Below the pieces are notes generated by a model that did no database searches, was not told the DNA's origin, and saw nothing but the letters and a program-made list of their open reading frames with translations. The translations under genes and the position numbers were made by a program. This document shows, one piece after another, positions 1 through 64,000 of a DNA stretch of 64,000 nt; position 1 is the first letter of the stretch, and every line of letters begins with the position of its first letter. Source of the stretch: Psococerastis gibbosa (Eukaryota > Arthropoda > Insecta > Psocodea > Psocidae); contig CAXART010000009.1 of assembly GCA_963971405.1 (NCBI GenBank), positions 434,001 to 498,000 of the forward strand, given 5' to 3'.

Positions 1-499
1 GCAGGAACAATTGCTCAATGTTGAGTACAATACAATGAGCCAAAATAAGCCAAACTAAGACACCCGTGTCATATCAAGACCTTTAAAAAAAATAAAATAA
101 GTATATAGCTATTTTTCGTATTCTTGTCGAATGAATTTTTTGTAGCTACATTTACACCGATGTACACGCAGGAGCAAGTGTTCAATGTTAAGTACAATAC
201 AATGAGCCTAAATAAGCAAAATTAAGACACCTATATCTTTTAAAGACCTTTAAAAAAAATAAAATAAGTAAATAGCTATTTTTCTTATTCTTGTCGAATG
301 AATTTTTTTTAGCTACATTTACACCGATGAACACGCAGGAGCAATTGTTCAATGTTAAGTACAATACAATGAGCCAAAATAAGCAAAATTAAGACACTCA
401 TATCATATCAAGACCTTTAAAAAAAAAAATAAGTATATAGCTATTTTTCTTATTCTTGTCGAATGAATTTTTTGTAGCTACATTTACACCGATGAACAC

Positions 500-1830
500 G
501 CTGGAGCAATTGCCTAATGTTAGATACAGTACAATGAGCCAAAATAAGCAAAATAAAGACACCTATATCTTTTTAAAACCTTTAAAAAAATAAAATAAGT
601 AAATAGCTATTTTTCTTATTCTTGTCGAATGAATTTTTTTTAGCTACATTTACACCGATGAACACGCAGGAGCAATTGCTCAATGTTAATTACAATACAA
701 TAAGCCAAAATAAGCCAAATTAAGACACCCGTGTCATATCAAGACCTTTAAAAAAAATAAAATAAGTATTTAGCTAATTTTCTTATTCTTGTCGAATGAA
801 TTTTTTTTAGCAACATTTAAACCGATGTACAAGCAGGAGCAATTGTTTAATATCAAGTGCGATACAATGAGCCAAAATAAGCAAAATTAAGACACCTACA
901 TCTTTTAGAAACCTTTAAAAAAATAAAATAAGTAAATAGCTATTTTTCTTATTCTTGTCGAATAAATTTTTTTTAGCTACATTTACAACGATGAACACAC
1001 AGAAGCAATTGCTCAATGTTAATTACAATACAATGAGCCAAAATAAGCCAAATTTAGACACCCGTGTCATATCAAGACCTTTAAAAAAAATAAAATAAGT
1101 ATATAGCTAATTTTCTTATTCTTGTCGAATGAATTTTTTTTAGCTACATTTACACCGATGAACACAAAGGAGCAATTGCCCAATGTTAAGTACAATACAA
1201 TGAGCCAAAATAAGCAAAATTTAGACACCCAAATCATATCAAGACCTTTAAAAAAATAATATAAGTAAATAGCTATTTTTTTTATTTTTGTCGAATGAAT
1301 TTTTTTTAGCAACATTTAAACCGATGAACACGCAGGAGCAATTGCTCAATGTCACGTACAATACAATGAGCCTAAATAAGCAAAATTAAGACACCTATAT
1401 CTTTTTAAGACCTTTAAAAAAAATAAAATAAGTAAAAAGCTATTTTTCTTATTCTTGTCGAATGAATTTTTTTTAGCTACATTTACACCGATGAACACGC
1501 AGGAACAATTGCTCAATGTTACGTACAATACAATGAGCCAAATTAAGCAAAATTAAGACACCTATATCTTTTTAAAACCTTCAAAAAAAATAAAATAAGT
1601 AAATAGCTATTTTTCTTATTCTTGTCGAATGAATTTTTTTTAGCTACATTTACACAGATGAACACGCAGAAGCAATTGCTCAATGTTAAGTACAATACAA
1701 TGAGCCAAAATAAGCAAAATTAAGACACTCATATCATATCAAGACCTTTAAAAAAAAAAATAAGTATATAGCTATTTTTCTTATTCTTGTCGAATGAATT
1801 TTTTGTAGCTACATTTACACAGATGAACAC
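500..1830 (+). repeat. Nested 8-monomer repeat, copy 1 (1331 bp)
   Basis: This block opens with the variant monomer start GCTGGAGCAATTGCCTAATG (G to T at the third base of the usual GCAGG start, and CTC to CCT in the palindrome). The same start returns 1331 bp later at 1831 and again at 3162. Member monomers include the AAGCAGG, ACAGAAGC and AAAGGAGC start variants in fixed order. Small differences between copies exist, such as CACACAGAAG at about 995 against CACGCAGAAG at about 2327. Confidence 0.9.
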
Positions 1831-3161
1831 GCTGGAGCAATTGCCTAATGTTAGATACAGTACAATGAGCCAAAATAAGCAAAATAAAGACACCTATATC
1901 TTTTTAAAACCTTTAAAAAAATAAAATAAGTAAATAGCTATTTTTCTTATTCATGTCGAATGAATTTTTTTTAGCTACATTTACACCGATGAACACGCAG
2001 GAGCAATTGCTCAATGTTAATTACAATACAATGAGCCAAAATAAGCCAAATTAAGACACCCGTGTCATATCAAGACCTTTAAAAAAAATAAAATAAGTAT
2101 TTAGCTAATTTTCTTATTCTTGTCGAATGAATTTTTTTTAGCAACATTTAAACCGATGTACAAGCAGGAGCAATTGTTTAATATCAAGTGCGATACAATG
2201 AGCCAAAATAAGCAAAATTAAGACACCTACATCTTTTAGAAACCTTTAAAAAAATAAAATAAGTAAATAGCTATTTTTCTTATTCTTGTCGAATAAATTT
2301 TTTTTAGCTACATTTACAACGATGAACACGCAGAAGCAATTGCCCAATGTTAATTACAATACAATGAGCCAAAATAAGCCAAATTTAGACACCCGTGTCA
2401 TATCAAGACCTTTAAAAAAAATAAAATAAGTATATAGCTAATTTTCTTATTCTTGTCGAATGAATTTTTTTTAGCTACATTTACACCGATGAACACAAAG
2501 GAGCAATTGCTCAATGTTAAGTACAATACAATGAGCCAAAATAAGCAAAATTTAGACACCCAAATCATATCAAGACCTTTAAAAAAATAATATAAGTAAA
2601 TAGCTATTTTTTTTATTTTTGTCGAATGAATTTTTTTTAGCAACATTTAAACCGATGAACACGCAGGAGCAATTGCTCAATGTCACGTACAATACAATGA
2701 GCCTAAATAAGCAAAATTAAGACACCTATATCTTTTTAAGACCTTTAAAAAAAATAAAATAAGTAAAAAGCTATTTTTCTTATTCTTGTCGAATGAATTT
2801 TTTTTAGCTACATTTACACCGATGAACACGCAGGAACAATTGCTCAATGTTACGTACAATACAATGAGCCAAATTAAGCAAAATTAAGACACCTATATCT
2901 TTTTAAAACCTTCAAAAAAAATAAAATAAGTAAATAGCTATTTTTCTTATTCTTGTCGAATGAATTTTTTTTAGCTACATTTACACAGATGAACACGCAG
3001 GAGCAATTGCTCAATGTTAAGTACAATACAATGAGCCAAAATAAGCAAAATTAAGACACTCATATCATATCAAGACCTTTAAAAAAAAAAATAAGTATAT
3101 AGCTATTTTTCTTATTCTTGTCGAATGAATTTTTTGTAGCTACATTTACACAGATGAACAC
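1831..3161 (+). repeat. Nested 8-monomer repeat, copy 2 (1331 bp)
   Basis: Direct tandem copy of 500-1830 with the same order of eight monomer variants. It carries only scattered single-base differences, for example TTCATGTCG at about 1951 in place of TTCTTGTCG and AATACAATGAGCC at about 2026 in place of AATACAATAAGCC. Confidence 0.9.
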
Positions 3162-3660
3162 GCTGGAGCAATTGCCTAATGTTAGATACAGTACAATGAG
3201 CCAAAATAAGCAAAATAAAGACACCTATATCTTTTTAAAACCTTTAAAAAAATAAAATAAGTAAATAGCTATTTTTCTTATTCTTGTCGAATGAATTTTT
3301 TTTAGCTACATTTACACCGATGAACACGCAGGAGCAATTGCTCAATGTTAATTACAATACAATGAGCCAAAATAAGCCAAATTAAGACACCCGTGTCATA
3401 TCAAGACCTTTAAAAAAAATAAAATAAGTATTTAGCTAATTTTCTTATTCTTGTCGAATGAATTTTTTTTAGCAACATTTAAACCGATGTACACGCAGGA
3501 GCAATTGTTTAATATCAAGTGCGAAACAATGAGCCAAAATAAGCAAAATTAAGACACCTACATCTTTTAGAAACCTTTAAAAAAATAAAATAAGTATATA
3601 GCTAATTTTCTTATTCTTGTCGAATGAATTTTTTTTAGCTACATTTACACCGATGAACAC
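3162..3660 (+). repeat. Nested repeat, partial third copy ending in a hybrid monomer
   Basis: Three monomers (3162, 3328, 3495) restart the 8-monomer series. The third is a hybrid: its front carries TTTAATATCAAGTGC and CTACATCTTTTAGAAACC of one monomer type, while its tail carries GTATATAGCTAATTTTC of the next type, so the series skips a monomer. The switch lies around the A tract, near 3580-3595. Confidence 0.78.
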
Positions 3661-6660
3661 GCAGGAGCAATTGCTCAATATTAAGTACAATACAATGAGC
3701 CAAAATAAGCAAAATTTAGACACCCAAATCATATCAAGACCTTTAAAAAAAATAATATAAATAAATAGCTATTTTTTTTATTCTTGTCGAATGAATTTTT
3801 TTTAGCAAGATTTAAACCGATGAACACGCAGGAGCAATTGCTCAATGTCACGTACAATACAATGAGCCTAAATAAGCAAAATTAAGACACCTATATCTTT
3901 TTAAGACCTTTAAAAAAAATAAAATAAGTAAATAGCTATTTTTCTTATTCTTGTCGAATGAATTTTTTTTAGCTACATTTACACCGATGAACACGCAGGA
4001 ACAATTGCTCAATGTTAAGTACAATACAATGAGCCAAAATAAGCAAAATTAAGACACCTATATCTTTTTAAAACCTTTAAAAAAAATAAAATAAGTAATT
4101 AGCTATTTTTCTTATTCTTGTCGAATGAATTTTTTTTAGCTACATTTACACCGATGAACACGCACGAGCAATTGCTCAATGTCAAGTACAATACAATGAG
4201 CCTAAATGAGCAAAATTAAGACACCTATATCTTTTTAAGACCTTTAAAAAAAATAAAATAAGTAAATAGCTATTTATCTTATTCTTGTCGAATGAATTTG
4301 TTTTAGCTACATTTACACCGATGAACACGCAGGAACAATTGCTCAATGTTAAGTACAATACAATGAGCCAAAATAAGCAAAATTAAGACACCTATATCTT
4401 TTTAAAACCTTTAAAAAAAATAAAATAAGTAATTAGCTATTTTTCTTATTCCTGTCGAATGAATTTTTTTTAGCTACATTTACACCGATGAACACGCAGG
4501 AACAATTGCTCAATGTTAAGTACAATACAATGAGGCAAAATAAGCAAAATTAAGACACCTATATCTTTTTAAAACCTTTAAAAAAATAAAATAAGTAAAT
4601 AGCTATTTTTCCTATTCTTGTCGAATGAATTTTTTTTAGCTACATTTACACCGATGAACACGCAGGAGCAACTGCTCAATGTTAAGTACAATACAATAAG
4701 CCAAAATAAGCCAAATTAAGACACATGCGTCATATCAAGACCTTTAAAAAAAATAAAATAAGTATATAGCTATTTTTCGTATTCTTGTCGAATGAATTTT
4801 TTGTAGCTACATTTACACCGATGTACACGCAGGAGCAAGTGGTCAATGTTAAGTACAATACAATGAGCCTAAATAAGCAAAATTAAGACACCTATATCTT
4901 TTTAAGACCTTTAAAAAAAATAAAATAAGTAAATAGCTATTTTTCTTATTCCTGTCGAATGAATTTTTTTTAGCTACATTTACAACGACGAACACGCAGG
5001 AACAATAGCTCATTGTTAAGTACAATACAGTGAGCCAAAATAGGCAAAATTAAGACACCTATATCTTTTTAAAACCTTTAAAAAAAATAAAATAAGTAAA
5101 TAGCTATTTTTCTTATTCTTGTCTAATGAATTTTTTTTAGCTACATTTACACCGATGAACACGCAGGAACAATTGCTCAATGTTGAGTACAATACAATGA
5201 GCCAAAATAAGCCAAACTAAGACACCCGTGTCATATCAAGACCTTTAAAAAAAATAAAATAAGTATATAGCTATTTTTCGTATTCTTGTCGAATGAATTT
5301 TTTGTAGCTACATTTACACCGATGTACACGCAGGAGCAAGTGTTCAATGTTAAGTACAATACAATGAGCCTAAATAAGCAAAATTAAGACACCTATATCT
5401 TTTAAAGACCTTTAAAAAAAATAAAATAAGTAAATAGCTATTTTTCTTATTCTTGTCGAATGAATTTTTTTTAGCTACATTTACACCGATGAACACGCAG
5501 GAGCAATTGTTCAATGTTAAGTACAATACAATGAGCCAAAATAAGCAAAATTAAGACACTCATATCATATCAAGACCTTTAAAAAAAAAAATAAGTATAT
5601 AGCTATTTTTCTTATTCTTGTCGAATGAATTTTTTGTAGCTACATTTACACCGATGAACACGCTGGAGCAATTGCCTAATGTTATATACAGTACAATGAG
5701 CCAAAATAAGCAAAATAAAGACACCTATATCTTTTTAAAACCTTTAAAAAAATAAAATAAGTAAATAGCTATTTTTCTTATTCTTGTCGAATGAATTTTT
5801 TTTAGCTACATTTACACCGATGAACACGCAGGAGCAATTGCTCAATGTTAATTACAATACAATAAGCCAAAATAAGCCAAATTAAGACACCCGTGTCATA
5901 TCAAGACCTTTAAAAAAAATAAAATAAGTATTTAGCTAATTTTCTTATTCTTGTCGAATGAATTTTTTTTAGCAACATTTAAACCGATGTACAAGCAGGA
6001 GCAATTGTTTAATATCAAGTGCGATACAGTGAGCCAAAATAAGCAAAATTAAGACACCTACATCTTTTAGAAACCTTTAAAAAAATAAAATAAGTAAATA
6101 GCTATTTTTCTTATTCTTGTCGAATAAATTTTTTTTAGCTACATTTACAACGATGAACACGCAGAAGCAATTGCTCAATGTTAATTACAATACAATGAGC
6201 CAAAATAAGCCAAATTTAGACACCCGTGTCATATCAAGACCTTTAAAAAAAATAAAATAAGTATATAGCTAATTTTCTTATTCTTGTCGAATGAATTTTT
6301 TTTAGCTACATTTACACCGATGAACACAAAGGAGCAATTGCTCAATGTTAAGTACAATACAATGAGCCAAAATAAGCAAAATTTAGACACCCAAATCATA
6401 TCAAGACATTTAAAAAAATAATATAAGTAAATAGCTATTTTTTTTATTTTTGTCGAATGAATTTTTTTTAGCAACATTTAAACCGATGAACACGCAGGAG
6501 CAATTGCTCAATGTCACGTACAATACAATGAGCCTAAATAAGCAAAATTAAGACACCTATATCTTTTTAAGACCTTTAAAAAAAATAAAATAAGTAAAAA
6601 GCTATTTTTCTTATTCTTGTCGAATGAATTTTTTTTAGCTATATTTACACCGATGAACAC

Positions 6661-6994
6661 GCAGGAACAATTGCTCAATGTTAAGTACAATACAATGAGC
6701 CAAAATAAGCAAAACTAAGACACCTATATCTTTTTAAAACCTTTAAAAAAAATAAAATAAGTAATTAGCTATTTTTCTTATTCTTGTCGAATGAATTTTT
6801 TTTAGCTACATTTACACCGATGAACACGCACGAGCAATTGCTCAATGTTAATTACAATACAATGAGCCAAAATAAGCCAAATTTAGACACCCGTGTCATA
6901 TCAAGACCTTTAAAAAAAATAAAATAAGTATATAGCTAATTTTCTTATTCTTGTCGAATGAATTTTTTTTAGCTACATTTACACCGATGAACAC
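6661..6994 (+). repeat. Two-monomer insert with a hybrid monomer in HOR B
   Basis: Monomer 6661 carries CAAAACTAAGAC and GTAATTAGC, like monomer 10 of the 21-mer HOR (12157). Monomer 6828 begins with GCACGAGCAATTGCTCAATG, typical of monomer 11 (12324), but continues with TTAATTAC and the CCCGTGTC tail of monomer 7 (11657). The join is in the first 20-25 bases of the unit and returns the series to monomers already passed, which duplicates several monomers downstream. Confidence 0.75.
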
Positions 6995-7659
6995 AAAGGA
7001 GCAATTGCTCAATGTTAAGTACAATACAATGAGCCAAAATAAGCAAAATTTAGACACCCAAATCATATCAAGACCTTTAAAAAAATAATATAAGTAAATA
7101 GCTATTTTTTTTATTTTTGTCGAATGAATTTTTTTTAGCAACATTTAAACCGATGAACACGCAGGAGCAATTGCTCAATGTCACGTACAATACAATGAGC
7201 CTAAATAAGCAAAATTAAGACACCTATATCTTTTTAAGACCTTTAAAAAAAATAAAATAAGTAAAAAGCTATTTTTCTTATTCTTGTCGAATGAATTTTT
7301 TTTAGCTACATTTACACCGATGAACACGCAGGAACAATTGCTCAATGTTACGTACAATACAATGAGCCAAATTAAGCAAAATTAAGACACCTATATCTTT
7401 TTAAAACCTTCAAAAAAAATAAAATAAGTAAATAGCTATTTTTCTTATTCTTGTCGAATGAATTTTTTTTAGCTACATTTACACAGATGAACACGCAGAA
7501 GCAATTGCTCAATGTTAAGTACAATACAATGAGCCAAAATAAGCAAAATTAAGACACTCATATCATATCAAGACCTTTAAAAAAAAAAATAAGTATATAG
7601 CTATTTTTCTTATTCTTGTCGAATGAATTTTTTGTAGCTACATTTACACAGATGAACAC

Positions 7660-8824
7660 GCTGGAGCAATTGCCTAATGTTAGATACAGTACAATGAGCC
7701 AAAATAAGCAAAATAAAGACACCTATATCTTTTTAAAACCTTTAAAAAAATAAAATAAGTAAATAGCTATTTTTCTTATTCTTGTCGAATGAATTTTTTT
7801 TAGCTACATTTACACCGATGAACACGCAGGAGCAATTGCTCAATGTTAATTACAATACAGTGAGCCAAAATAAGCCAAATTAAGACACCCGTGTCATATC
7901 AAGACCTTTAAAAAAAATAAAATAAGTATTTAGCTAATTTTCTTATTCTTGTCGAATGAATTTTTTTTAGCAACATTTAAACCGATGTACACGCAGGAGC
8001 AATTGTTTAATATCAAGTGCGATACAATGAGCCAAAATAAGCAAAATTAAGACACCTACATCTTTTAGAAACCTTTAAAAAAATAAAATAAGTATATAGC
8101 TAATTTTCTTATTCTTGTCGAATGAATTTTTTTTAGCTACATTTACACCGATGAACACGCAGGAGCAATTGCTCAATATTAAGTACAATACAATGAGCCA
8201 AAATAAGCAAAATTTAGACACCCAAATCATATCAAGACCTTTAAAAAAAATAATATAAGTAAATAGCTATTTTTTTTATTCTTGTCGAATGAATTTTTTT
8301 TAGCAACATTTAAACCGATGAACACGCAGGAGCAATTGCTCAATGTCACGTACAATACAATGAGCCTAAATAAGCAAAATTAAGACACCTATATCTTTTT
8401 AAGACCTTAAAAAAAAATAAAATAAGTAAAAAGCTATTTTTCTTATTCTTGTCGAATGAATTTTTTTTAGCTACATTTACACCGATGAACACGCAGGAAC
8501 AATTGCTCAATGTTACGTACAATACAATGAGCCAAATTAAGCAAAATTAAGACACCTATATCTTTTTAAAACCTTCAAAAAAAATAAAATAAGTAAATAG
8601 CTATTTTTCTTATTCTTGTCGAATGAATTTTTTTTAGCTACATTTACACAGATGAACACGCAGGAGCAATTGCTCAATGTTAAGTACAATACAATGAGCC
8701 AAAATAAGCAAAATTAAGACACTCATATCATATCAAGACCTTTAAAAAAAAAAATAAGTATATAGCTATTTTTCTTATTCTTGTCGAATGAATTTTTTGT
8801 AGCTACATTTACACAGACGAACAC
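7660..8824 (+). repeat. Nested 7-monomer repeat in HOR B (1165 bp)
   Basis: Begins with GCTGGAGCAATTGCCTAATG at 7660; the same start recurs at 8825. It corresponds to the 8-monomer block of copy A with one monomer lost, because unit 7993-8158 is the same kind of hybrid seen at 3495 (front TTTAATATCAAGTGC, tail GTATATAGCTAATTTTC). Confidence 0.82.
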
Positions 8825-9490
8825 GCTGGAGCAATTGCCTAATGTTAGATACAGTACAATGAGCCAAAATAAGCAAAATAAAGACACCTATATCTTTTTA
8901 AAACCTTTAAAAAAATAAAATAAGTAAATAGCTATTTTTCTTATTCTTGTCGAATGAATTTTTTTTAGCTACATTTACACCGATGAACACGCAGGAGCAA
9001 TTGCTCAATGTTAATTACAATACAATGAGCCAAAATAAGCCAAATTAAGACACCCGTGTCATATCAAGACCTTTAAAAAAAATAAAATAAGTATTTAGCT
9101 AATTTTCTTATTCTTGTCGAATGAATTTTTTTTAGCAACATTTAAACCGATGTACACGCAGGAGCAATTGTTTAATATCAAGTGCGAAACAATGAGCCAA
9201 AATAAGCAAAATTAAGACACCTACATCTTTTAGAAACCTTTAAAAAAATAAAATAAGTATATAGCTAATTTTCTTATTCTTGTCGAATGAATTTTTTTTA
9301 GCTACATTTACACCGATGAACACGCAGGAGCAATTGCTCAATATTAAGTACAATACAATGAGCCAAAATAAGCAAAATTTAGACACCCAAATCATATCAA
9401 GACCTTTAAAAAAAATAATATAAATAAATAGCTATTTTTTTTATTCTTGTCGAATGAATTTTTTTTAGCAAGATTTAAACCGATGAACAC
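8825..9490 (+). repeat. Nested repeat in HOR B, partial further copy
   Basis: Four monomers (8825, 8991, 9158, 9324) restart the nested series, again with a hybrid at 9158. They share AAGTGCGAAAC with 3495-3660 of copy A. From 9491 the sequence leaves the nested series and enters the HOR tail. Confidence 0.78.
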
Positions 9491-12327
9491 GCAGGAGCAA
9501 TTGCTCAATGTCACGTACAATACAATGAGCCAAAATAAGCAAAATTAAGACACCTATATCTTTTTAAAACCTTTAAAAAAAATAAAATAAGTAATTAGCT
9601 ATTTTTCTTATTCTTGTCGAATGAATTTTTTTTAGCTACATTTACACCGATGAACACGCACGAGCAATTGCTCAATGTCAAGTACAATACAATGAGCCTA
9701 AATGAGCAAAATTAAGACACCTATATCTTTTTAAGACCTTTAAAAAAAATAAAATAAGTAAATAGCTATTTATCTTATTCTTGTCGAATGAATTTGTTTT
9801 AGCTACATTTACACCGATGAACACGCAGGAACAATTGCTCAATGTTAAGTACAATACAATGAGCCAAAATAAGCAAAATTAAGACACCTATATCTTTTTA
9901 AAACCTTTAAAAAAAATAAAATAAGTAATTAGCTATTTTTCTTATTCCTGTCGAATGAATTTTTTTTAGCTACATTTACACCGATGAACACGCAGGAACA
10001 ATTGCTCAATGTTAAGTACAATACAATGAGGCAAAATAAGCAAAATTAAGACACCTATATCTTTTTAAAACCTTTAAAAAAATAAAATAAGTAAATAGCT
10101 ATTTTTCCTATTCTTGTCGAATGAATTTTTTTTAGCTACATTTACACCGATGAACACGCAGGAGCAACTGCTCAATGTTAATTACAATACAATGAGCCAA
10201 AATAAGCCAAATTAAGACACATGCGTCATATCAAGACCTTTAAAAAAAATAAAATAAGTATATAGCTATTTTTCGTATTCTTGTCGAATGAATTTTTTGT
10301 AGCTACATTTACACCGATGTACACGCAGGAGCAAGTGGTCAATGTTAAGTACAATACAATGAGCCTAAATAAGCAAAATTAAGACACCTATATCTTTTTA
10401 AGACCTTTAAAAAAAATAAAATAAGTAAATAGCTATTTTTCTTATTCCTGTCGAATGAATTTTTTTTAGCTACATTTACAACGACGAACACGCAGGAACA
10501 ATAGCTCATTGTTAAGTACAATACAGTGAGCCAAAATAGGCAAAATTAAGACACCTATATCTTTTTAAAACCTTTAAAAAAAATAAAATAAGTAAATAGC
10601 TATTTTTCTTATTCTTGTCTAATGAATTTTTTTTAGCTACATTTACACCGATGAACACGCAGGAACAATTGCTCAATGTTGAGTACAATACAATGAGCCA
10701 AAATAAGCCAAACTAAGACACCCGTGTCATATCAAGACCTTTAAAAAAAATAAAATAAGTATATAGCTATTTTTCGTATTCTTGTCGAATGAATTTTTTG
10801 TAGCTACATTTACACCGATGTACACGCAGGAGCAAGTGTTCAATGTTAAGTACAATAGAATGAGCCTAAATAAGCAAAATTAAGACACCTATATCTTTTA
10901 AAGACCTTTAAAAAAAATAAAATAAGTAAATAGCTATTTTTCTTATTCTTGTCGAATGAATTTTTTTTAGCTACATTTACACCGATGAACACGCAGGAGC
11001 AATTGTTCAATGTTAAGTACAATACAATGAGCCAAAATAAGCAAAATTAAGACACTCATATCATATCAAGACCTTTAAAAAAAAAAATAAGTATATAGCT
11101 ATTTTTCTTATTCTTGTCGAATGAATTTTTTGTAGCTACATTTACACCGATGAACACGCTGGAGCAATTGCCTAATGTTATATACAGTACAATGAGCCAA
11201 AATAAGCAAAATAAAGACACCTATATCTTTTTAAAACCTTTAAAAAAATAAAATAAGTAAATAGCTATTTTTCTTATTCTTGTCGAATGAATTTTTTTTA
11301 GCTACATTTACACCGATGAACACGCAGGAGCAATTGCTCAATGTTAATTACAATACAATAAGCCAAAATAAGCCAAATTAAGACACCCGTGTCATATCAA
11401 GACCTTTAAAAAAAATAAAATAAGTATTTAGCTAATTTTCTTATTCTTGTCGAATGAATTTTTTTTAGCAACATTTAAACCGATGTACAAGCAGGAGCAA
11501 TTGTTTAATATCAAGTGCGATACAATGAGCCAAAATAAGCAAAATTAAGACACCTACATCTTTTAGAAACCTTTAAAAAAATAAAATAAGTAAATAGCTA
11601 TTTTTCTTATTCTTGTCGAATAAATTTTTTTTAGCTACATTTACAACGATGAACACGCAGAAGCAATTGCTCAATGTTAATTACAATACAATGAGCCAAA
11701 ATAAGCCAAATTTAGACACCCGTGTCATATCAAGACCTTTAAAAAAAATAAAATAAGTATATAGCTAATTTTCTTATTCTTGTCGAATGAATTTTTTTTA
11801 GCTACATTTACACCGATGAACACAAAGGAGCAATTGCTCAATGTTAAGTACAATACAATGAGCCAAAATAAGCAAAATTTAGACACCCAAATCATATCAA
11901 GACCTTTAAAAAAATAATATAAGTAAATAGCTATTTTTTTTATTTTTGTCGAATGAATTTTTTTTAGCAACATTTAAACCGATGAACACGCAGGAGCAAT
12001 TGCTCAATGTCACGTACAATACAATGAGCCTAAATAAGCAAAATTAAGACACCTATATCTTTTTAAGACCTTTAAAAAAAATAAAATAAGTAAAAAGCTA
12101 TTTTTCTTATTCTTGTCGAATGAATTTTTTTTAGCTACATTTACACCGATGAACACGCAGGAACAATTGCTCAATGTTAAGTACAATACAATGAGCCAAA
12201 ATAAGCAAAACTAAGACACCTATATCTTTTTAAAACCTTTAAAAAAAATAAAATAAGTAATTAGCTATTTTTCTTATTCTTGTCGAATGAATTTTTTTTA
12301 GCTACATTTACACCGATGAACACGCAC

Positions 12328-12339
12328 GAGCAATTGCTC
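12328..12339. other. 12-bp perfect palindrome GAGCAATTGCTC (example)
   Basis: Equal to its own reverse complement; occupies monomer positions 5-16. In HOR copy C the full dyad is intact in 5 of 21 monomers (numbers 5, 8, 9, 11, 16). Others carry one or more mismatches (GAACAATTGCTC, GAGCAACTGCTC, GAGCAAGTGGTC, GAGCAATTGTTC), and the inner CAATTG survives in most. Short dyads are a known feature of several centromeric satellites; a binding role here is only a possibility. Confidence 0.9.
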
Positions 12340-12425
12340 AATGTCAAGTACAATACAATGAGCCTAAATAAGCAAAATTAAGACACCTATATCTTTTTAA
12401 GACCTTTAAAAAAAATAAAATAAGT

Positions 12426-12437
12426 AAATAGCTATTT
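12426..12437. other. 12-bp perfect palindrome AAATAGCTATTT (example)
   Basis: Monomer positions 103-114. In the consensus it is flanked by AATAAG on the left and CTTATT on the right, extending the dyad to about 27 bp with a one-base asymmetry. In copy C it is intact in 10 of 21 monomers (2, 4, 6, 8, 11, 13, 16, 18, 20, 21); the rest have GTATATAGC, GTAATTAGC, GTATTTAGC or GTAAAAAGC versions. Confidence 0.9.
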
Positions 12438-53165: not shown

Positions 53166-54164
53166 GCAGGAGCAATTGTTCAATGTTAAGTACAATACAA
53201 TGAGCCAAAATAAGCAAAATTAAGACACCCTTATCATATCAAGACCTTTAAAAAAAATAAAATAAGTAAATAGCTATTTTTTTGATTCTTGTCGAATGAA
53301 TTTTTTTTAGCAACATTTAAACCGATGTACACGCAGGAGCAATTGTTTAATATCAAGTACGATACATTGAGCCAAAATAAGCAAAATTAAGACACCTACA
53401 TCTTTTAGAAACCTTTAAAAAAATAAAATAAGTAAATAGCTATTTTTCTTATTCTTGTCGAATGAATTTTTTTTAGCTACATTTACAACGATGAACACGC
53501 AGAAGCAATTGCTCAATGTTAATTACAATACAATGAGCCAAAAAAAGCCAAATTTAGACACCCGTAACATATCAAGACCTTTAAAAAAAATAAAATAAGT
53601 ATATAGCTAATTTTCTTATTCTTGTCGAATGAATTTTTTTTAGCTACATTTACACCGATGAACACGCAGGAGCAATTGCTCAATGTTAAGTACAATACAA
53701 TGAGCCAAAATAAGCAAAATTTAGACACCCAAATCATATCAAGACCTTTAAAAAAAATAATATAAGTAAATAGCTATTTTTTTTATTCTTGTCGAATGAA
53801 TTTTTTTTAGCAACATTTAAACCGATGAACACGCAGGAGCAATTGCTCAATGTCAAGTACAATACAATGAGCCTAAATAAGCAAAATTAAGACACCTATA
53901 TCTTTTTAAGACCTTTAAAAAAAATAAAATAAGTAAATAGCTATTTTTCTTATTCTTGTCGAATGAATTTTTTTTAGCTACATTTACACCGATGAACACG
54001 CAGGAACAATTGCTCAATGTTAAGTACAATACAATGAGCCAAAATAAGCAAAATTAAGACACCTATATCTTTTTAAAACCTTTAAAAAAAATAAAATAAG
54101 TAATTAGCTATTGTTCTTATTCTTGTCGAATGAATTTTTTTTAGCTACATTTACACCGATGAAC
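53166..54164 (+). repeat. Recent copy of block I start (offset 10005 bp from 43161)
   Basis: It shares private variants with 43161 onward that block II lacks: GAGCCAAAAAAAGCC (43531 and 53536) and CACCCGTAACATATC (43554 and 53559). The offset is exactly 10005 bp, 60 monomers. Downstream it gains three extra monomers (about 54165-54660) relative to block I. Confidence 0.83.
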
Positions 54165-57100
54165 ACGCACGAGCAATCGCTCAATGTCAAGTACAATACA
54201 ATGAGCCTAAATAAGCAAAATTAAGACACCCATATCTTTTTAAGACCTTTAAAAAAATAAAATAAGTAAATAGCTATTTTTCTTATTCTTGTCGAATGAA
54301 TTTTTTTTAGCTACATTTACACCGATGAACACGCAGGAACAATTGCTCAATGTTAAGTACAATACAGTGAGCCAAAATAAGCAAAATTAAGACACCTTTA
54401 TCTTTTTAAAACCTTTAAAAAAAATAAAATAAGTAATTAGCTATTTTTCTTATTCTTGTCGAATGAATTTTTTTTAGCTACATTTACACCGATGAACACG
54501 CAAGAGCAATTGCTCAATGTTAAGTACAATACAATGAGGCAAAATAAGCAAAATTAAGACACCTATATCTTTTTAAAACCTTTAAAAAAATAAAATAAGT
54601 AAATAGCTATTTTTCCTATTCTTGTCGAATGAATTTTTTTTAGCTACATTTACACCGATGAACACGCAGGAGCAACTGCTCAATGTTAAGTACAATACAA
54701 TGAGCCAAAATAAGCCAAATTAAGACACCCGCGTCATATCAAGACCTTTAAAAAAAATAAAATAAGTATATAGCTATTTTTCGTATTCTTGTCGAATGAA
54801 TTTTTTGTAGCTACATTTACACCGATGTACACGCAGGAGCAAGTGGTCAATGTTAAGTACAATACAATGAGCCTAAATAAGCAAAATTAAGACACCTATA
54901 TCTTTTTAAGACCTTTAAAAAAAATAAAATAAGTAAATAGCTATTTTTCGTATTCTTGCCGTATGAATTTTTTTAAGCTTCATTTACACCGATGAACACG
55001 CAGGAGCAATTGCTCAATGTTAAGTACAATACACTGAGCCAAAATAAGCAAAATAAAGACACCTATATCTTTTTAAAACCTTTAAAAAAAATAAAATAAG
55101 TAAATAGCTATTTTTCGTATTCTTGTCGAATGAATTTTTTGTAGCTACATTTACACCGATGAACACGCTGGAGCAATTGCCTAATGTTAGGTACAGTACA
55201 GTGAGCCAAAATAAGCAAAATTAAGACACCTATATCTTTTTAAAACCTTTAAAAAAAATAAAATAAGTAATTAGCTATTTTTCGTATTCTTGCCGTATGA
55301 ATTTTTTTAAGCTTCATTTACACCGATGAACACGCAGGAGCAATTGCTCAATGTTAAGTACAATACACTGAGCCAAAATAAGCAAAATAAAGACACTTAT
55401 ATCTTTTTAAAACCTTTAAAAAAAATAAAATAAGTAAATAGCTATTTTTCTTATTCTTGTCGAATGAATTTTTTTTAGCCACATTTACACCGATGAACAC
55501 GCAGGAACAATTGCTGAATGTTAAGTACAATACATTGAGCCAAAATAAGCAAAATAAAGACACCTATATCTTTTTAAAACCTTCAAAAAAAATAAAATAA
55601 GTAAATAGCTATTTTTCTTATTCTTGTCGAATGAATTTTTTTTAGCTACATTTACACCGATGAACACGCTGGAGCAATTGCCTAATGTTAGATACAGTAC
55701 AATGAGCCAAAATAAGCAAAATTAAGACACCTATATCTTTATAAACCTTTAAAAAAAATAAAATAAGTAATTAGCTATTTTTCGTATTCTTGCCGTATGA
55801 ATTTTTTTAAGCTTCATTTACACCGATGAACACGCAGGAGCAATTGCTCAATGTTAAGTACAATACAATGAGCCTAAATAAGCAAAATTAAGACACCTAT
55901 ATCTTTTGGAGACCTTTAAAAAAAATAATATAAGTAAATAGCTATTTTTCTTATTCTTGTCGAATGAATTGTTTTAGCTACATTTACACCGATGAACACG
56001 CAGGAACAATTTCTCAATGTTAAGTACAATATATTGAGCCAAAATAAGCAAAATTAAGACACCTATATCTTTTTAAAACCTTTAAAAAAAATAAAATAAG
56101 TAAATAGCTATTTTTCTTATTCTTGTCGAATGAATTTTATTTAGCTACATTCACACCGATGAACAATCCGGAGCAATTGCTCAATGTTAAGTTCAATACA
56201 ATAAGCCAAAATAAGCCAAATTAAGACACCCGTGTCATATCAAGACCTTAAAAAAAAATAAAATAAGTATATAGCTATTTTTCTTATTCTTGCCGTATGA
56301 ATTTTTTGTAGCTACATTTACACCGATAATCACGCAGGAGCAAGTGGCCAATGTTAAGTACAATACAGTGAGCCTAAATAAGCAAAACTAAGACACCTAT
56401 ATCTTTATAAAACCTTTTAAAAAAATAAAATAAGTAAATAGCTATTTTTCTTATTCTTGTCGAATGAATTTTTTTAGCTACATTTACACCGATGAACACG
56501 CAGGAACAATTTCTCAATGTTAAGTACAATACATTGAGCCAAAATAAGCAAAATTAAGACACCTATATGTTTTTAAAACCTTTAAAAAAAATAAAATAAG
56601 TAAATAGCTATTTTTCTTATTCTTGTCGAATGAATTTTTTTTAGCTACATTTACACCGATGAACACGCAGGAGCAATTGTTCAATGTTAAGTACAATACA
56701 GTGAGCCAAAATAAGCAAAATTAAGACACCCTTATCATATCAAGACCTTTAAAAAAAATAAAATAAGTAAATAGCTATTTTTTTTATTCTTGTCGAATGA
56801 ATTTTTTTTAGCAACATTTAAACCGATGAACACGCAGGAGCAATTGCTCAATGTCAAGTACAATACAATGAGCCAAAATAAGCAAAATTAAGACACCTAT
56901 ATCTTTTTAAAACCTTTAAAAAAATAAAATAAGTAAATAGCTATTTTTCTTATTCTTGTCGAATGAATTTTTTTTAGCTACATTTACACCGATGAACACG
57001 CAGGAGCAATTGCTCAATGTTTATTACAATACAATGAGCCAAAATAAGCCAAATTAAGACACCCGTGTCATATCAAGACCTTTAAAAAAAATAAAATAAG

Positions 57101-58167
57101 TAAATAGCTATTTTTCGTATTCTTGTCTAATGAATTTTTTGTAGCTACATTTACACCGATGAACACGCAGGAGCAAGTGGTCAATGTTAAGTACAATACA
57201 GTGAGCCTAAATAAGCATAACTAAGACACCTATATCTTTTTAAGACCTTTAAAAAAAATAAAATATGTAAATAGCTATTTTTCTTATTCTTGTCGAATGA
57301 ATTTTTTTTAGCTACATTTACACCGATGAACACGCAGGAACAATTGCTCAATGTTGAGTACAATACAGTGAGCCAAAATAAGCCAAATTAAGACACCCGT
57401 GTCATATCAAGACCTTTAAAAAAAATAAAATAAGTATATAGCTATTTTTCGTATTCTTGTCGAATGAATTTTTTGTAGCTACATTTACACCGATGTACAC
57501 GCAGGAGCAAGTGTTCAATGTTAAGTACAATACAATGAGCCAAAATAAGCCAAATTATGACACCCGTGTCATATCAAGACCTTTAAAAAAAATAAAATAA
57601 GTATATAGCTATTTTTCGTATTCTTGTCGAATGAATTTTTTGTAGCTACATTTACACCGATGTACACGCAGGAGCAAGTGTTCAATGTTAAGTACAATAC
57701 AATGAGCCTAAATAAGCAAAATTAAGACACCTATATCTTTTTAAGACCTTTAAAAAAAATAAAATAAGTAAATAGCTATTTTTTTTATTCTTGTCGAATG
57801 AATTTTTTTTAGCAACATTTAAACCGATGTACACGCAGGAGCAATTGTTTAATATCAAGTACGATACAATGAGCCAAAATAAGCAAAATTAAGACACCTA
57901 CATCTTTTAGAAACCTTTAAAAAAATAAAATAAGTAAATAGCTATTTTTCTTATTCTTGTCGAATGAATTTTTTTTAGCTACATTTACAACGATGAACAC
58001 GCAGAAGCAATTGCTCAATGTTAATTACAATACAATGAGCCAAAATAAGCCAAATTTAGACACCCGTGTCATATCAAGACCTTTAAAAAAAATAAAATAA
58101 GTATATAGCTAATTTTCTTATTCTTGTCGAATGAATTTTTTTTAGCTACATTTACACCGATGAACAC

Positions 58168-59002
58168 GCAGGAGCAATTGCTCAATGTTAAGTACAATAC
58201 AATGAGCCAAAATAAGCAAAATTTAGACACCCAAATCATATCAAGACCTTTAAAAAAAATAATATAAGTAAATAGCTATTTTTTTTATTCTTGTCGAATG
58301 AATTTTTTTTAGCAACATTTAAACCGATGAACACGCAGGAGCAATTGCTCAATGTCAAGTACAATACAATGAGCCTAAATAAGCAAAATTAAGACACCTA
58401 TATCTTTTTAAGACCTTTAAAAAAAATAAAATAAGTAAATAGCTATTTTTCTTATTCTTGTCGAATGAATTTTTTTTAGCTACATTTACACCGATGAACA
58501 CGCAGGAACAATTGCTCAATGTTAAGTACAATACAATGAGCCAAAATAAGCAAAATTAAGACACCTATATCTTTTTAAAACCTTTAAAAAAAATAAAATA
58601 AGTAATTAGCTATTTTTCTTTTTCTTGTCGAATGAATTTTTTTTAGCTACATTTACACCGATGAACACGCACGAGCAATTGCTCAATGTCAAGTACAATA
58701 CAATGAGCCTAAATAAGCAAAATTAAGACACCTATATCTTTTTAAGACCTTTAAAAAAAATAAAATAAGTAAATAGCTATTTTTCTTATTCTTGTCGAAT
58801 GAATTTTTTTTAGCTACATTTACACCGATGAACACGCAGGAACAATTGCTCAATGTTAAGTACAATACAATGAGCCAAAATAAGCAAAATTAAGACACCT
58901 TTATCTTTTTAAAACCTTTAAAAAAAATAAAATAAGTAATTAGCTATTTTTCTTATTCTTGTCGAATGAATTTTTTTTAGCTACATTTACACCGATGAAC
59001 AC
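58168..59002 (+). repeat. Five-monomer tandem duplication, copy 1 (835 bp)
   Basis: Monomers at 58168, 58335, 58502, 58669 and 58836 repeat in order at 59003 onward. Copy 1 has CTTTTTCTTG at about 58618 where other arrays have CTTATTCTTG. Confidence 0.87.
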
Positions 59003-59837
59003 GCAGGAGCAATTGCTCAATGTTAAGTACAATACAATGAGCCAAAATAAGCAAAATTTAGACACCCAAATCATATCAAGACCTTTAAAAAAAATAATAT
59101 AAGTAAATAGCTATTTTTTTTATTCTTGTCGAATGAATTTTTTTTAGCAACATTTAAACCGATGAACACGCAGGAGCAATTGCTCAATGTCAAGGACAAT
59201 ACAATGAGCCTAAATAAGCAAAATTAAGACACCTATATCTTTTTAAGACCTTTAAAAAAAATAAAATAAGTAAATAGCTATTTTTCTTATTCTTGTCGAA
59301 TGAATTTTTTTTAGCTACATTTACACCGATGAACACGCAGGAACAATTGCTCAATGTTAAGTACAATACAATGAGCCAAAATAAGCAAAATTAAGACACC
59401 TATATCTTTTTAAAACCTTTAAAAAAAATAAAATAAGTAATTAGCTATTTTTCTTCTTCTTGTCGAATGAATTTTTTTTAGCTACATTTACACCGATGAA
59501 CACGCACGAGCAATTGCTCAATGTCAAGTACAATACAATGAGCCTAAATAAGCAAAATTAAGACACCTATATCTTTTTAAGACCTTTAAAAAAAATAAAA
59601 TAAGTAAATAGCTATTTTTCTTATTCTTGTCGAATGAATTTTTTTTAGCTACATTTACACCGATGAACACGCAGGAACAATTGCTCAATGTTAAGTACAA
59701 TACAATGAGCCAAAATAAGCAAAATTAAGACACCTTTATCTTTTTAAAACCTTTAAAAAAAATAAAATAAGTAATTAGCTATTTTTCTTATTCTTGTCGA
59801 ATGAATTTTTTTTAGCTACATTTACACCGATGAACAC
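59003..59837 (+). repeat. Five-monomer tandem duplication, copy 2 (835 bp)
   Basis: Exact 835-bp step from 58168. Differences noticed are CAAGGACAATAC at about 59191 (copy 1 CAAGTACAATAC) and CTTCTTCTTG at about 59453, at the same base that is changed in copy 1. At 59838 the array leaves the duplication with a TGAGGCAAAATAAG monomer. Confidence 0.87.
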
Positions 59838-62800
59838 GCAGGAGCAATTGCTCAATGTTAAGTACAATACAATGAGGCAAAATAAGCAAAATTAAGACAC
59901 CTATATCTTTTTAAAACCTTTAAAAAAATAAAATAAGTAAATAGCTATTTTTCCTATTCTTGTCGAATGAATTTTTTTTAGCTACATTTACACCGATGAA
60001 CACGCAGGAGCAACTGCTCAATGTTAAGTACAATACAATGAGCCAAAATAAGCCAAATTAAGACACCCGCGTCATATCAAGACCTTTAAAAAAAATAAAA
60101 TAAGTATATAGCTATTTTTCGTATTCTTGTCGAATGAATTTTTTGTAGCTACATTTACACCGATGTACACGCAGGAGCAAGTGGTCAATGTTAAGTACAA
60201 TACAATGAGCCTAAATAAGCAAAATTAAGACACCTATATCTTTTAAAGACCTTTAAAAAAAATAAAATAATTAAATAGCTATTTTTCGTATTCTTGCCGT
60301 ATGAATTTTTTTAAGCTTCATTTACACCGATGAACACGCAGGAGCAATTGCTCAATGTTAAGTGCAATACACTGAGCCAAAATAAGCAAAATAAAGACAC
60401 CTATATCTTTTTAAAACCTTTAAAAAAAATAAAATAAGTAAATAGCTATTTTTCGTATTCTTGTCGAATGAATTTTTTGTAGCTACATTTACACAGATGA
60501 ACACGCTGGAGCAATTGCCTAATGTTAGGTACAGTACAGTGAGCCAAAATAAGCAAAATTAAGACACCTATATCTTTTTAAAACCTTTAAAAAAAATAAA
60601 ATAAGTAATTAGCTATTTTTCGTATTCTTGCCGTATGAATTTTTTTAAGCTTCATTTACACCGATGAACACGCAGGAGCAATTGCTCAATGTTTAGTACA
60701 ATACACTGAGCCAAAATAAGCAAAATAAAGACACCTTTATCTTTTTAAAACCTTTAAAAAAAATAAAATAAGTAAATAGCTATTTTTCTTATTCTTGTCG
60801 AATGAATTTTTTTTAGCCACATTTACACCGATGAACACGCAGGAACAATTGCTAAATGTTAAGTACAATACATTGAGCCAAAATAAGCAAAATAAAGACA
60901 CCTATATCTTTTTAAAACCTTCAAAAAAAATAAAATAAGTAAATAGCTATTTTTCTTATTCTTGTCGAATGAATTTTTTTTAGCTACATTTACACCGATG
61001 AACACGCTGGAGCAATTGCCTAATGTTAGATACAGTACAATGAGCCAAAATAAGCAAAATTAAGACACCTATATCTTTATAAACCTTTAAAAAAAATAAA
61101 ATAAGTAATTAGCTATTTTTCGTATTCTTGCCGTATGAATTTTTTTAAGCTTCATTTACACCGATGAACACGCAGGAGCAATTGCTCAATGTTAAGTACA
61201 ATACACTGAGCCAAAATAAGCAAAATAAAGACACCTATATCTTTTTAAAACCTTAAAAAAAAAAAAATAAGTAAATAGCTATTTTTCTTATTCTTGTCGA
61301 ATGAATTTTTTTTAGCCACATTTACACCGATGAACACGCAGGAACAATTGCTCAATGTTAATTACAATACATTGAGCCAAAATAAGGAAAATAAAGACAC
61401 CTATATCTTTTTAAAACCTTTAAAAAAAATAAAATAAGTAAATAGCTATTTTTCTTATTCTTGTCGAATGAATTTTATTTAGCTACATTCACACCGATGA
61501 ACAATCCGGAGCAATTGCTCAATGTTAAGTTCAATACAATAAGCCAAAATAAGCCAAATTAAGACACCCGTGTCATATCAAGACCTTAAAAAAAAATAAA
61601 ATAAGTATATAGCTATTTTTCTTATTCTTGCCGTATGAATTTTTTGTAGCTACATTTACACCGATGAACACGCAGGAGCAAGTGGCCAATGTTATGTACA
61701 ATACAGTGAGCCTAAATAAGCAAAACTAAGACACCTATATCTTTATAAGACCTTTTAAAAAAATAAAATAAGTAAATAGCTATTTTTCTTATTCTTGTCG
61801 AATGAATTTTTTTAGCTACATTTACACCGATGAACACGCAGGAACAATTTCTCAATGTTAAGTACAATACATTGAGCCAAAATAAGCAAAATTAAGACAC
61901 CTATATCTTTTTAAAACCATTAAAAAAAATAAAATAAGTAAATAGCTATTTTTCTTATTCTTGTCGAATGAATTTTTTTTTAGCTACATTTACACCGATG
62001 AACACGCAGGAGCAATTGTTCAATGTTAAGTACAATACAGTGAGCCAAAATAAGCAAAATTAAGACACCCTTATCATATCAAGACCTTTAAAAAAAATAA
62101 AATAAGTAAATAGCTATTTTTTTTATTCTTGTCGAATGAATTTTTTTTAGCTACATTTACACCGATGAACACGCAGGAACAATTGCTCAATGTTAAGTAC
62201 AATACAATGAGCCAAAATAAGCAAAATTAAGACACCTATATCTTTTTAAAACCTTTAAAAAAAATAAAATAAGTAATTAGCTATTTTTCTTATTCTTGTC
62301 GAATGAATTTTTTTTAGCTACATTTACACCGATGAACACGCACGAGCAATGGCTCAATGTCAAGTACAATACAATGAGCCTAAATAAGCAAAATTAAGAC
62401 ACCTTTATCTTTTTAAGACCTTTAAAAAAAATAAAATAAGTAAATAGCTATTTTTCTTATTCTTGTCGAATGAATTTTTTTTAGCTACATTTACACCGAT
62501 GAACACGCAGGAACAATTGCTCAATGTTAAGTACAATACAATGAGCCAAAATAAGCAAAATTAAGACACCTTTATCTTTTTAAAACCTTTAAAAAAAATA
62601 AAATAAGTAATTAGCTATTTTTCTTATTCTTGTCGAATGAATTTTTTTTAGCTACATTTACACCGATGAACACGCAGGAGCAATTGCTCAATGTTAAGTA
62701 CAATACAATGAGGCAAAATAAGCAAAATTAAGACACCTATATCTTTTTAAAACCTTTAAAAAAATAAAATAAGTAAATAGCTATTTTTCCTATTCTTGTC

Positions 62801-63672
62801 GAATGAATTTTTTTTAGCTACATTTACACCGATGAACACGCACGAGCAATTGCTCAATGTCAAGTACAATACAATGAGCCTAAATAAGCAAAATTGAGAC
62901 ACCTATATCTTTTTAAGACCTTTAAAAAAAGTAAAATAAGTAAATAGCTATTTTTCTTATTCTTGTCGAATGAATTTTTTTTAGCCACATTTACACCGAT
63001 GAACACGCAGGAACAATTGCTGAATGTTAAGTACAATACATTGAGCCAAAATAAGCAAAATAAAGACACCTATATCTTTTTAAAACCTTCAAAAAAAATA
63101 AAATAAGTAAATAGCTATTTTTCTTATTCTTGTCGAATGAATTTTTTTTAGCTACATTTACACCGATGAACACGCTGGAGCAATTGCCTAATGTTAGATA
63201 CAGTACAATGAGCCAAAATAAGCAAAATTAAGACACCTATATCTTTATAAACCTTTAAAAAAAATAAAATAAGTAATTAGCTATTTTTCGTATTCTTGCC
63301 GTATGAATTTTTTTAAGCTTCATTTACACCGATGAACACGCAGGAGCAATTGCTCAATGTTAAGTACAATACAATGAGCCTAAATAAGCAAAATTAAGAC
63401 ACCTATATCTTTTGGAGACCTTTAAAAAAAATAATATAAGTAAATAGCTATTTTTCTTATTCTTGTCGAATGAATTGTTTTAGCTACATTTACACCGATG
63501 AACACGCAGGAACAATTTCTCAATGTTAAGTACAATATATTGAGCCAAAATAAGCAAAATTAAGACACCTATATCTTTTTAAAACCTTTAAAAAAAATAA
63601 AATAAGTAAATAGCTATTTTTCTTATTCTTGTCGAATGAATTTTATTTAGCTACATTCACACCGATGAACAA

Positions 63673-64000
63673 TCCGGAGCAATTGCTCAATGTTAAGTTC
63701 AATACAATAAGCCAAAATAAGCCAAATTAAGACACCCGTGTCATATCAAGACCTTAAAAAAAAATAAAATAAGTATATAGCTATTTTTCTTATTCTTGCC
63801 GTATGAATTTTTTGTAGCTACATTTACACCGATGAACACGCAGGAGCAAGTGGCCAATGTTAAGTACAATACAGTGAGCCTAAATAAGCAAAACTAAGAC
63901 ACCTATATCTTTATAAGACCTTTTAAAAAAATAAAATAAGTAAATAGCTATTTTTCTTATTCTTGTCGAATGAATTTTTTTAGCTACATTTACACCGATG
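63673..64000 (+). repeat. Start of a further long HOR copy, cut by the window edge
   Basis: Two monomers following the AACAATCCGGAGC boundary start repeat those after 48999 and 56167 (GTGGCCAATG, CTTTATAAGACC, T7 tract). The array continues beyond base 64000. Confidence 0.85.

What the first reader, a model, noticed from the sequence alone, without database searches (positions are those of the whole stretch)
1..64000. Uninterrupted 64-kb single-family satellite array with layered higher-order repeats
About 384 monomers in one orientation, with no transposon, gene or spacer, organised into at least four HOR architectures. This is the signature of an active or recently active centromere or a major heterochromatin block. 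I do not recognise the family by sequence, so it may be undescribed.
Basis: partly seen in the sequence, partly recalled or inferred. Interest (0 to 1): 0.8.

Follow-up and report, generated by a model that had tools for sequence, protein, structure and literature searches.

The report
Chromosome-tip satellite DNA of a barkfly

Summary
All 64 kb are one ~167-bp, 72% AT satellite: 384 anchors, all + strand, spaced 165-168 bp, in layered higher-order repeats: a 3,500-bp 21-mer, 8-mers, 13/14-mers and a 9-kb duplication at 99.9%.

The centromere reading is not supported. Lengths identify the genome as Psococerastis gibbosa (barkfly), whose order is holokinetic and whose C-heterochromatin is reported as small, terminal, mostly AT-rich blocks. 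Contig C16 (973 kb) probably continues in C35, where the satellite abuts a 7.8-kb (TTAGG)n telomere about 523 kb from the window. C3 and C4 also run from telomere into this satellite. In sparse sampling, arrays occupy one end of five of nine chromosomes and no right end. A second ~800-bp repeat lies inward of them and on satellite-free ends.

Verdict: an apparently undescribed subtelomeric satellite, roughly 4% of the assembly, most likely the terminal AT-rich heterochromatin; a known kind, like the 169-bp Myzus satellite. Side finding: the published 'Y' is satellite at 9 of 21 sampled points in a species karyotyped X0.

The parts
1..64000 (+). Single-family satellite array, consensus monomer 167 bp, AT 72%, 384 monomer anchors in one orientation; middle part of a roughly 1-Mb array (contig C16, probably continued in C35) whose + strand runs towards a telomere
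124..9613 (+). HOR region 1: mosaic built on an 8-mer unit (about 1.33 kb, monomer types 2-9) with shortened versions
   Evidence: type string; lag-8 run of 12 monomers from 291 at 99.2%
9614..31450 (+). HOR region 2: 21-mer unit of 3,500 bp in two tracts (about 9,614-19,280 and 21,614-31,450) with an irregular stretch between them; unit copies about 99.7-99.8% alike
   Evidence: lag-21 runs of 37 and 38 monomers
10281..19280 (+). Source half of a segmental duplication: 54 monomers repeated 68 monomers (about 11.3 kb) downstream, from 21,614, at 99.88% mean identity
   Evidence: lag-68 run; shift 11,333 also
31615..42600 (+). HOR region 3: 13/14-mer units (about 2.2-2.3 kb; monomer types 15-1-9-18-3-19-20-20-6-22/23); right limit approximate
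   Evidence: lag-14 run of 14 monomers from 31,615 at 99.9%; lag-13 run of 10 from 38,115
42600..64000 (+). HOR region 4: mixed architecture with longer periods (for example lags 32 and 40) and short nested blocks; left limit approximate
   Evidence: lag-40 run of 10 from 45,120; lag-32 run of 13 from 53,622

Best explanation
The window is the middle of a roughly 1-Mb subtelomeric satellite block at one end of a holokinetic chromosome of the barkfly Psococerastis gibbosa. It most likely forms constitutive terminal heterochromatin between the TTAGG telomere and the gene-bearing chromosome. Shown here: same-family arrays touch telomeric repeats on three contigs, occupy one end of several chromosomes, and their bulk runs the same way relative to the end. 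Inferred: the array grows and is kept homogeneous by unequal exchange and segmental duplication within an end (hence nested HORs at about 99-99.9% identity) and, more slowly, by exchange between different autosome ends. Such exchange keeps polarity and a common consensus, with the X lagging behind. At C35 the telomere begins inside a satellite monomer, as if a broken end had been healed by telomerase. The block buffers the telomere and is not the spindle attachment site.
For: (1) Identity: assembly 409,210,807 bases; C1, C2, C3, C12 are 53.62, 52.57, 50.33, 49.17 Mb and the mitochondrion 17,084 bp. P. gibbosa is published at 409.21 Mb with those chromosome lengths and a 17.08-kb mitochondrion. 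(2) Psocoptera holokinetic; C-heterochromatin as tiny terminal blocks in the three species studied, P. gibbosa among them, AT-rich except at NORs and the X. (3) Telomere contact: at C35:47,616 the satellite passes directly into 7,784 bp of (TTAGG)n, 99.7% pure. C4 is telomeric at 5,201-5,230 and satellite at 5,501; C3 is telomeric at 9,001-9,030 and satellite at 10,001. (4) C16 to C35: the straddling monomer is exactly 167 bp with 0 edits to a known monomer; the 3 other partners tested give 99, 114 and 134 bp. An 11-monomer block over the join has 43 edits to its best match (0 in its first 7 monomers), against 58-85 for 15 random joins. (5) Same family at the left ends of C2, C3, C13, C14, C20 (5 of 9 chromosomes other than 'Y'); 0 of 9 right ends in the last 2-10 kb, 0 of 6 at -20 to -30 kb. 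(6) Bulk + strand points to the chromosome end in 7 of 7 arrays judged: C2, C3, C4, C13, C14, C16, C20. (7) Autosomal and unplaced arrays share the 167-bp consensus with few changes (between-array identity 0.89-0.91); the X samples stand at 0.85-0.86. (8) A second repeat (period about 800 bp or multiples) lies inward of satellite samples at C2:1.66-1.70 Mb, C3:620-669 kb, C13:291-302 kb and C14:1.41 Mb, and on right ends of C2, C12, C14; of the first 100 of 254 places listed only one (C13:2.47 Mb) is more than 2 Mb from an end.
Against: The C16-C35 join is my inference; the assembly holds them as two records, other possible partners (starts of C9-C11, reversed ends of - strand contigs) were not held and not tested, and the last 4 monomers of the 11-monomer block differ by 3-17 edits from the best match. 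Left ends of C1, C12, C15 and C19 showed no satellite where sampled (two of them begin with N). Interior coverage is by sparse samples and pattern counts. Only 3 of the 7 arrays in the polarity count (C3, C4, C16 through C35) have the telomere in sequence; for the others the scaffold start is taken as the chromosome end, and C20 rests on one inner sample. Polarity is broken near the tip in 3 arrays (C35, C14, C20). The C14 block is interrupted: C14:100,001-104,000 is not satellite. Much of the family appears to lie on the assembled 'Y' (C21), which does not fit a simple subtelomeric picture. Heterochromatic state was not measured. The C-banding result was read in a review, not in the original paper. 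Hi-C scaffolding in satellite is error-prone.
Confidence: 0.9

Rival explanations
1. Centromeric satellite: the array marks a localised centromere; the chromosomes would be telocentric with CENH3 on the array.
For: 167-bp nucleosome-sized monomer, Mb scale, HORs and a block at one chromosome end look like centromeric satellites; satellite at one end only where sampled. [quoted passage not shown]
Against: Psocoptera are described as holokinetic without primary constrictions; CenH3 was not found in lice, Hemiptera and other holocentric insects examined (passages); telomere contact; no exact 27-mer listed on chromosome 1; no CENP-B box. My H3 search shows no clear CenH3 among 21 matches, but two weak fragments were left unread. 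The CENP-C search is uninformative because its Ndc80 control also failed.
Confidence: 0.04
2. Satellite-based holocentromere: several Mb-scale arrays per chromosome carry the kinetochore, as in the plant Chionographis japonica.
For: Such holocentromeres exist (abstract read); some arrays here reach about 1 Mb (C16; C2 at its 1.0-Mb sample).
Against: The plant has 7-11 evenly spaced arrays per chromatid; here chromosome 1 has no exact 27-mer listed in 53.6 Mb, C2 is non-satellite at the 2 and 4 Mb samples, and 0 of 6 right-end samples have it.
Confidence: 0.02
3. Meiosis-only kinetic or pairing end: the satellite end works as the end-specific spindle or pairing site of holokinetic chromosomes in meiosis, while mitosis stays diffuse. 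This does not exclude the best explanation.
For: Satellite at 5 of 9 left ends and 0 of 9 right ends sampled; conserved bulk polarity; restriction or shift of kinetic activity in meiosis is described for holokinetic bugs (passage, reference title; the terminal form is recalled).
Against: [quoted passage not shown] four chromosomes have no satellite end shown; nothing tested directly.
Confidence: 0.08
4. Assembly artefact: collapsed or falsely expanded satellite, with the HORs produced by the assembler.
For: Satellite contigs C4-C11, C16 and C17 have lengths in whole kilobases, as if cut, and several lie outside chromosomes.
Against: HiFi assembly with reported primary QV 60.4; the window has no N; HOR copies differ slightly and their order varies along the array.
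Confidence: 0.04

Closest known systems
169-bp subtelomeric satellite of Myzus persicae aphids (Spence et al. 1998; seen as a citation and in passages of PMC12241859 and PMC3401891)
   Same: Holocentric insect, nucleosome-length monomer, subtelomeric position on several chromosomes
   Different: Other order; sequence not compared (not at hand). The passages I saw mention neither HORs nor one-ended placement; there it is on all autosomes.
Human alpha satellite and other centromeric HOR satellites (recalled)
   Same: About 170-bp monomer, nested HORs, local homogenisation, Mb scale
   Different: Not at a localised centromere as far as known; no CENP-B box; family joined to telomere; holokinetic host
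Terminal AT-rich C-heterochromatin of P. gibbosa (Golub et al. 2004, seen through passages of the review PMC8490342)
   Same: Terminal position, AT-rich, small blocks; very probably the same material seen under the microscope
   Different: Its sequence was not given in the passages I read; the identification is mine and untested by FISH

Membership tests
Subtelomeric satellite DNA | Long tandem array of one family | tested here: met
   384 head-to-tail monomers in the window; 15 of 15 C16 samples of 4-10 kb contain the array
Subtelomeric satellite DNA | Directly next to telomeric repeats | tested here: met
   Base-level junction on C35; within 271 bp on C4; within about 1 kb on C3. For the window's own contig it depends on the inferred C16-C35 join
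Subtelomeric satellite DNA | At ends of several chromosomes and not in the interior | tested here: inconclusive
   Ends: 5 of 9 left ends. Interior: no exact 27-mer listed on C1; samples C2 at 2 and 4 Mb, C14 at 1.5 Mb, C13 and C20 at 300 kb negative. Interior sampling is too sparse for a full answer, and C21 is an exception
Subtelomeric satellite DNA | Heterochromatic state | not testable with these tools
   Only literature: tiny terminal AT-rich C-bands
Centromeric satellite | Enrichment of CENH3 or kinetochore proteins | not testable with these tools
   Needs ChIP; whether the genome has CenH3 at all is unresolved
Centromeric satellite | Localised centromere in the species | not tested
   Literature says holokinetic
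Centromeric satellite | CENP-B box (alpha-satellite type; motif recalled) | tested here: not met
   0 boxes on either strand of the window; best consensus match 3 mismatches, the commonest result in shuffles (291 of 500)
Satellite-based holocentromere (Chionographis type) | Several evenly spaced arrays along every chromosome | tested here: not met
   No exact 27-mer listed on chromosome 1; on the other chromosomes sampled, arrays were met only towards one end
Myzus 169-bp satellite family | Sequence homology | not tested

The most novel reading that the evidence does not exclude
Each holokinetic chromosome of this insect has one satellite end and one satellite-free end. The satellite end, kept in fixed polarity by exchange between chromosomes, serves as the meiosis-specific kinetic or pairing end: a latent, centromere-like satellite in a lineage thought to have lost CenH3. 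The satellite-rich 'Y' would then be a supernumerary chromosome exploiting it.
Probability: 0.06. Interest if true: 0.85.

Novelty: new member of a known kind. Interest (0 to 1): 0.4.

Why it matters
It offers a sequence for the terminal AT-rich C-bands seen in this barkfly, in an order for which my search listed no satellite paper (20 of 69 listed). It suggests that centromere-like anatomy (about 167-bp monomers, multi-layer HORs, a block at one end of a chromosome) can arise at telomeres of holokinetic chromosomes, so HORs alone are not evidence of a centromere. It also gives a FISH probe that would test one-ended organisation and the disputed 'Y'.

Tried and rejected
CENP-C search with Pfam PF11699: 0 matches, but the intended positive control Ndc80 (PF03801) also gave 0, so neither result counts. 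Nucleosome-type 10-bp AT periodicity in the consensus: not above shuffles (274 of 1000 as strong). Internal sub-repeats: of lags 10-83 only lag 10, at 0.401 self-identity, passed the 0.40 reporting line. Direct continuation of C16 into C5, C7 or C17: rejected by monomer phase. Reading the mitochondrial COX1 by eye did not identify the species; the lengths did. A first length search ('409.2 megabases') found 0 papers. Whether the C21 non-satellite half is copied from autosomes: the search was swamped by a local C21 repeat (38 of 500 candidates scored) and is inconclusive. One correction after checking: nearest-neighbour identity is highest within the same array in 8 of 12 groups (one of them a tie), not in all.
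Full report
WHAT IS THERE. The window is one uninterrupted array of a 167-bp satellite, 384 anchors on one strand. GC is 0.275-0.289 in every 2-kb bin. Monomers average 91.4% identity to each other and 94.7% to the consensus. Ordering them shows layered higher-order repeats: an 8-mer mosaic to about 9.6 kb, a 21-mer (3,500 bp) to about 31.5 kb with a break near 19.3-21.6 kb, 13/14-mers to about 42.6 kb, and a mixed pattern with longer lags (32, 40 monomers) beyond. A block of 54 monomers recurs 68 monomers later at 99.88%. Runs of 5 or more matching monomers number 162, the longest 54, against a longest run of 5 and at most 2 such runs in 40 random orders.

WHERE IT COMES FROM. The window is G000:C16:434001-498000 in an assembly of 409,210,807 bases and 68 contigs. 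Chromosome lengths searched in the paper library returned Psococerastis gibbosa: 409.21 Mb, mitochondrion 17.08 kb, with chromosome lengths that agree (one, chromosome 5, is printed 47.06 against 47.05 here). Of the genome note I read the outline, part 1 of 4 and passages. It counts 69 scaffolds; 68 are held here.

POSITION ON THE CHROMOSOME. C16 is 973,000 bp. Its first ~1.87 kb is not satellite and looks by eye like a Penelope-type element, with no search made; 15 of 15 samples of 4-10 kb are + strand satellite beyond that, with one non-satellite stretch of about 0.6 kb at 360 kb. C16 was apparently cut at a whole kilobase. Of four satellite contigs tested as the next piece (C5, C7, C17, C35), only C35 continues the monomer phase: straddling monomer 167 bp, 0 edits to a known one, against 134, 99 and 114 bp for the others. 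Other possible partners were not held. An 11-monomer block over the join matches elsewhere with 43 edits, 0 in its first 7 monomers and 3-17 in each of the last 4; 15 random joins needed 58-85 in total. C35 carries the satellite onward, flips orientation near 14.1 kb, and at 47,616 passes directly into 7,784 bp of TTAGG repeats. If the join is right, the window ends 522.6 kb from that telomere. C3 (chromosome 3) and C4 (795 kb, outside the chromosome scaffolds) also run from telomere into the same satellite.

DISTRIBUTION. Exact 27-mer: 24,382 forward and 18,895 reverse copies, 0 in the reversed-pattern control. 24-mer with up to 2 mismatches: 56,223 and 45,199, control 0. Scaled by the window's own rate (189 and 366 per 64 kb) this is about 14.7-17.7 Mb, 3.6-4.3% of the assembly; a rough figure, since sampled arrays differ in 27-mer rate (0-4.75 per kb). 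The listing shows only the first 100 places, in contig order, and begins at C2, which implies no exact 27-mer on chromosome 1. Satellite is at the left end of C2, C3, C13, C14 and C20 (X); not found at sampled left ends of C1, C12, C15, C19 (two of these begin with N). Right ends: 0 of 9 in the last 2-10 kb (half of the C1 stretch is N), and telomere there in 7 of 9; 0 of 6 at -20 to -30 kb; 0 of 5 further points on C12 and C15. Of 40 points sampled, 12 of 12 on C3 and C4 and 10 of 10 on C5-C11, C17 and C18 were satellite; 0 of 8 on C12 and C15 and 0 of 10 on C24-C60 were; 0 of 40 shuffled 30-mers matched. The C14 block is broken: satellite at its start, 300 kb and 600 kb, not at 100 kb. A second subtelomeric repeat (254 exact 30-mers; first 100 listed; spacing about 800 bp or multiples) lies at about 1.66-1.70 Mb on C2, 620-669 kb on C3, 291-302 kb on C13 and 1.41 Mb on C14, each inward of the satellite samples there, and at right ends of C2, C12 and C14 and the left end of C12. 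So a satellite end probably reads: telomere, 167-bp satellite, 800-bp repeat, euchromatin. The inner edges of the arrays were not read.

EVOLUTION. Autosomal and unplaced arrays share the same 167-bp consensus with a few substitutions. Between-array identity is 0.89-0.91 among them and 0.85-0.86 to the X samples. Nearest-neighbour identity is highest within the same group in 8 of 12 groups (one a tie), not in C5, C6, C17 and C18; group sizes differ (18-399 monomers), which favours the large C16 sets. C17 and C18 are closest to each other, then to C16/C35. This fits the order of records (C16-C18 follow C15, chromosome 7) and suggests, without proof, that this end belongs to chromosome 7. Bulk polarity is + towards the end in 7 of 7 arrays judged (3 of 3 where the telomere is in sequence: C3, C4, C16 through C35), with local flips near the tip of C35, C14 and C20; C20 rests on one inner sample. 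Exchange between ends of non-homologous chromosomes keeps polarity and would explain both the shared consensus and the fixed direction; this is inference.

FUNCTION. The order is described as holokinetic, without primary constrictions (PMC6910881, parts 1-2 of 3 read). P. gibbosa is among three species with small terminal C-heterochromatin, AT-rich except at NORs and the X (PMC8490342, passages). CenH3 was not found in the lice, Hemiptera, moths, earwigs and dragonflies examined (PMC4359364, passages), though a review says that some holokinetic insects keep CenH3. Holocentric taxa generally carry heterochromatin at telomeres (PMC3401891, passages), and Myzus persicae has a 169-bp subtelomeric satellite (PMC12241859, passages). 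The simplest account is terminal heterochromatin. A centromere role is not excluded by experiment, but nothing here favours it over the terminal reading: no CENP-B box, and AT phasing no stronger than shuffles. My CENP-C and Ndc80 searches do not count, as the control failed.

THE 'Y'. C21 (12,031,718 bp, published as Y, GC 34%) is satellite at 9 of 21 sampled points, all between 5.9 and 11.9 Mb (9 of 10 points in that span), in both orientations, and carries another tandem repeat near 1.6 Mb. Yet males of this species were karyotyped 2n = 16 + X(0) (4 males, 46 nuclei), and the genome note of Loensia variegata, of the same family, reports no Y and an XO karyotype in related species (passages). 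C21 may be a real Y or B chromosome in British animals, or a scaffold into which satellite pieces were gathered.

NOVELTY. Searches for satellite DNA with Psocodea or barklice (69 papers, 20 listed, none of the listed with the term satellite DNA) and for the species name (4 papers, listing only for two of them) showed no description of this repeat. The kind, subtelomeric satellite of a holocentric insect, is known. I rate it a new member of a known kind.

Noticed in passing
C21 (L068, L075-L094), 12.03 Mb, published as Y: The assembled 'Y' is this satellite at 9 of 21 sampled points, while males of the species are karyotyped X0. It may be a Y, a B chromosome or a scaffolding artefact.
   Followed up: partly
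C16:973,000 and C35:1 (L030, L027): C35 (55 kb) appears to be the cut-off telomeric end of C16. Satellite contigs C4-C11, C16 and C17 have lengths in whole kilobases, as if cut during scaffolding.
   Followed up: partly
C2:1.66-1.70 Mb and 52.54-52.55 Mb, C3:620-669 kb, C12 both ends, C13:291-302 kb, C14 both ends: A second subtelomeric tandem repeat with a period of about 800 bp or multiples, inward of the satellite arrays and on satellite-free ends. The C13 sample in it (L061) also holds short CCTAA runs.
   Followed up: partly
C21:1.59-1.64 Mb: A different tandem repeat (spacings near 337 and 1,085 bp); all 92 matches listed for the C21 probe were on C21, but only 38 of 500 candidates were scored.
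   Followed up: no
C19:8,494-74,315: Four full-length histone H3 genes near the left end of chromosome 8, a probable histone cluster.
   Followed up: no
C19:8,257,078-8,257,233 and C3:41,065,774-41,065,878: Two weak, divergent H3-like fragments; whether either is a CenH3 or a pseudogene was not settled.
   Followed up: no
C16:1-1870 (L013) and C16:360,001-~360,630 (L020): Non-satellite inner edge that looks by eye like a GIY-YIG/Penelope-type coding stretch, and one non-satellite stretch inside the array, outside the window.
   Followed up: partly
C35:14,078-14,215, C14:1-700, C20 between 2 and 100 kb: Orientation flips of the satellite close to the chromosome tip in three arrays.
   Followed up: partly
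C20 (L047, L064): The X-linked satellite samples are clearly diverged (0.85-0.86 to the other arrays).
   Followed up: partly
many contigs, for example C14:11,085,363-11,086,704: Besides the mitochondrial contig, 42 weaker COX1-like matches lie on the chromosome scaffolds, probably nuclear copies of mitochondrial DNA.
   Followed up: no
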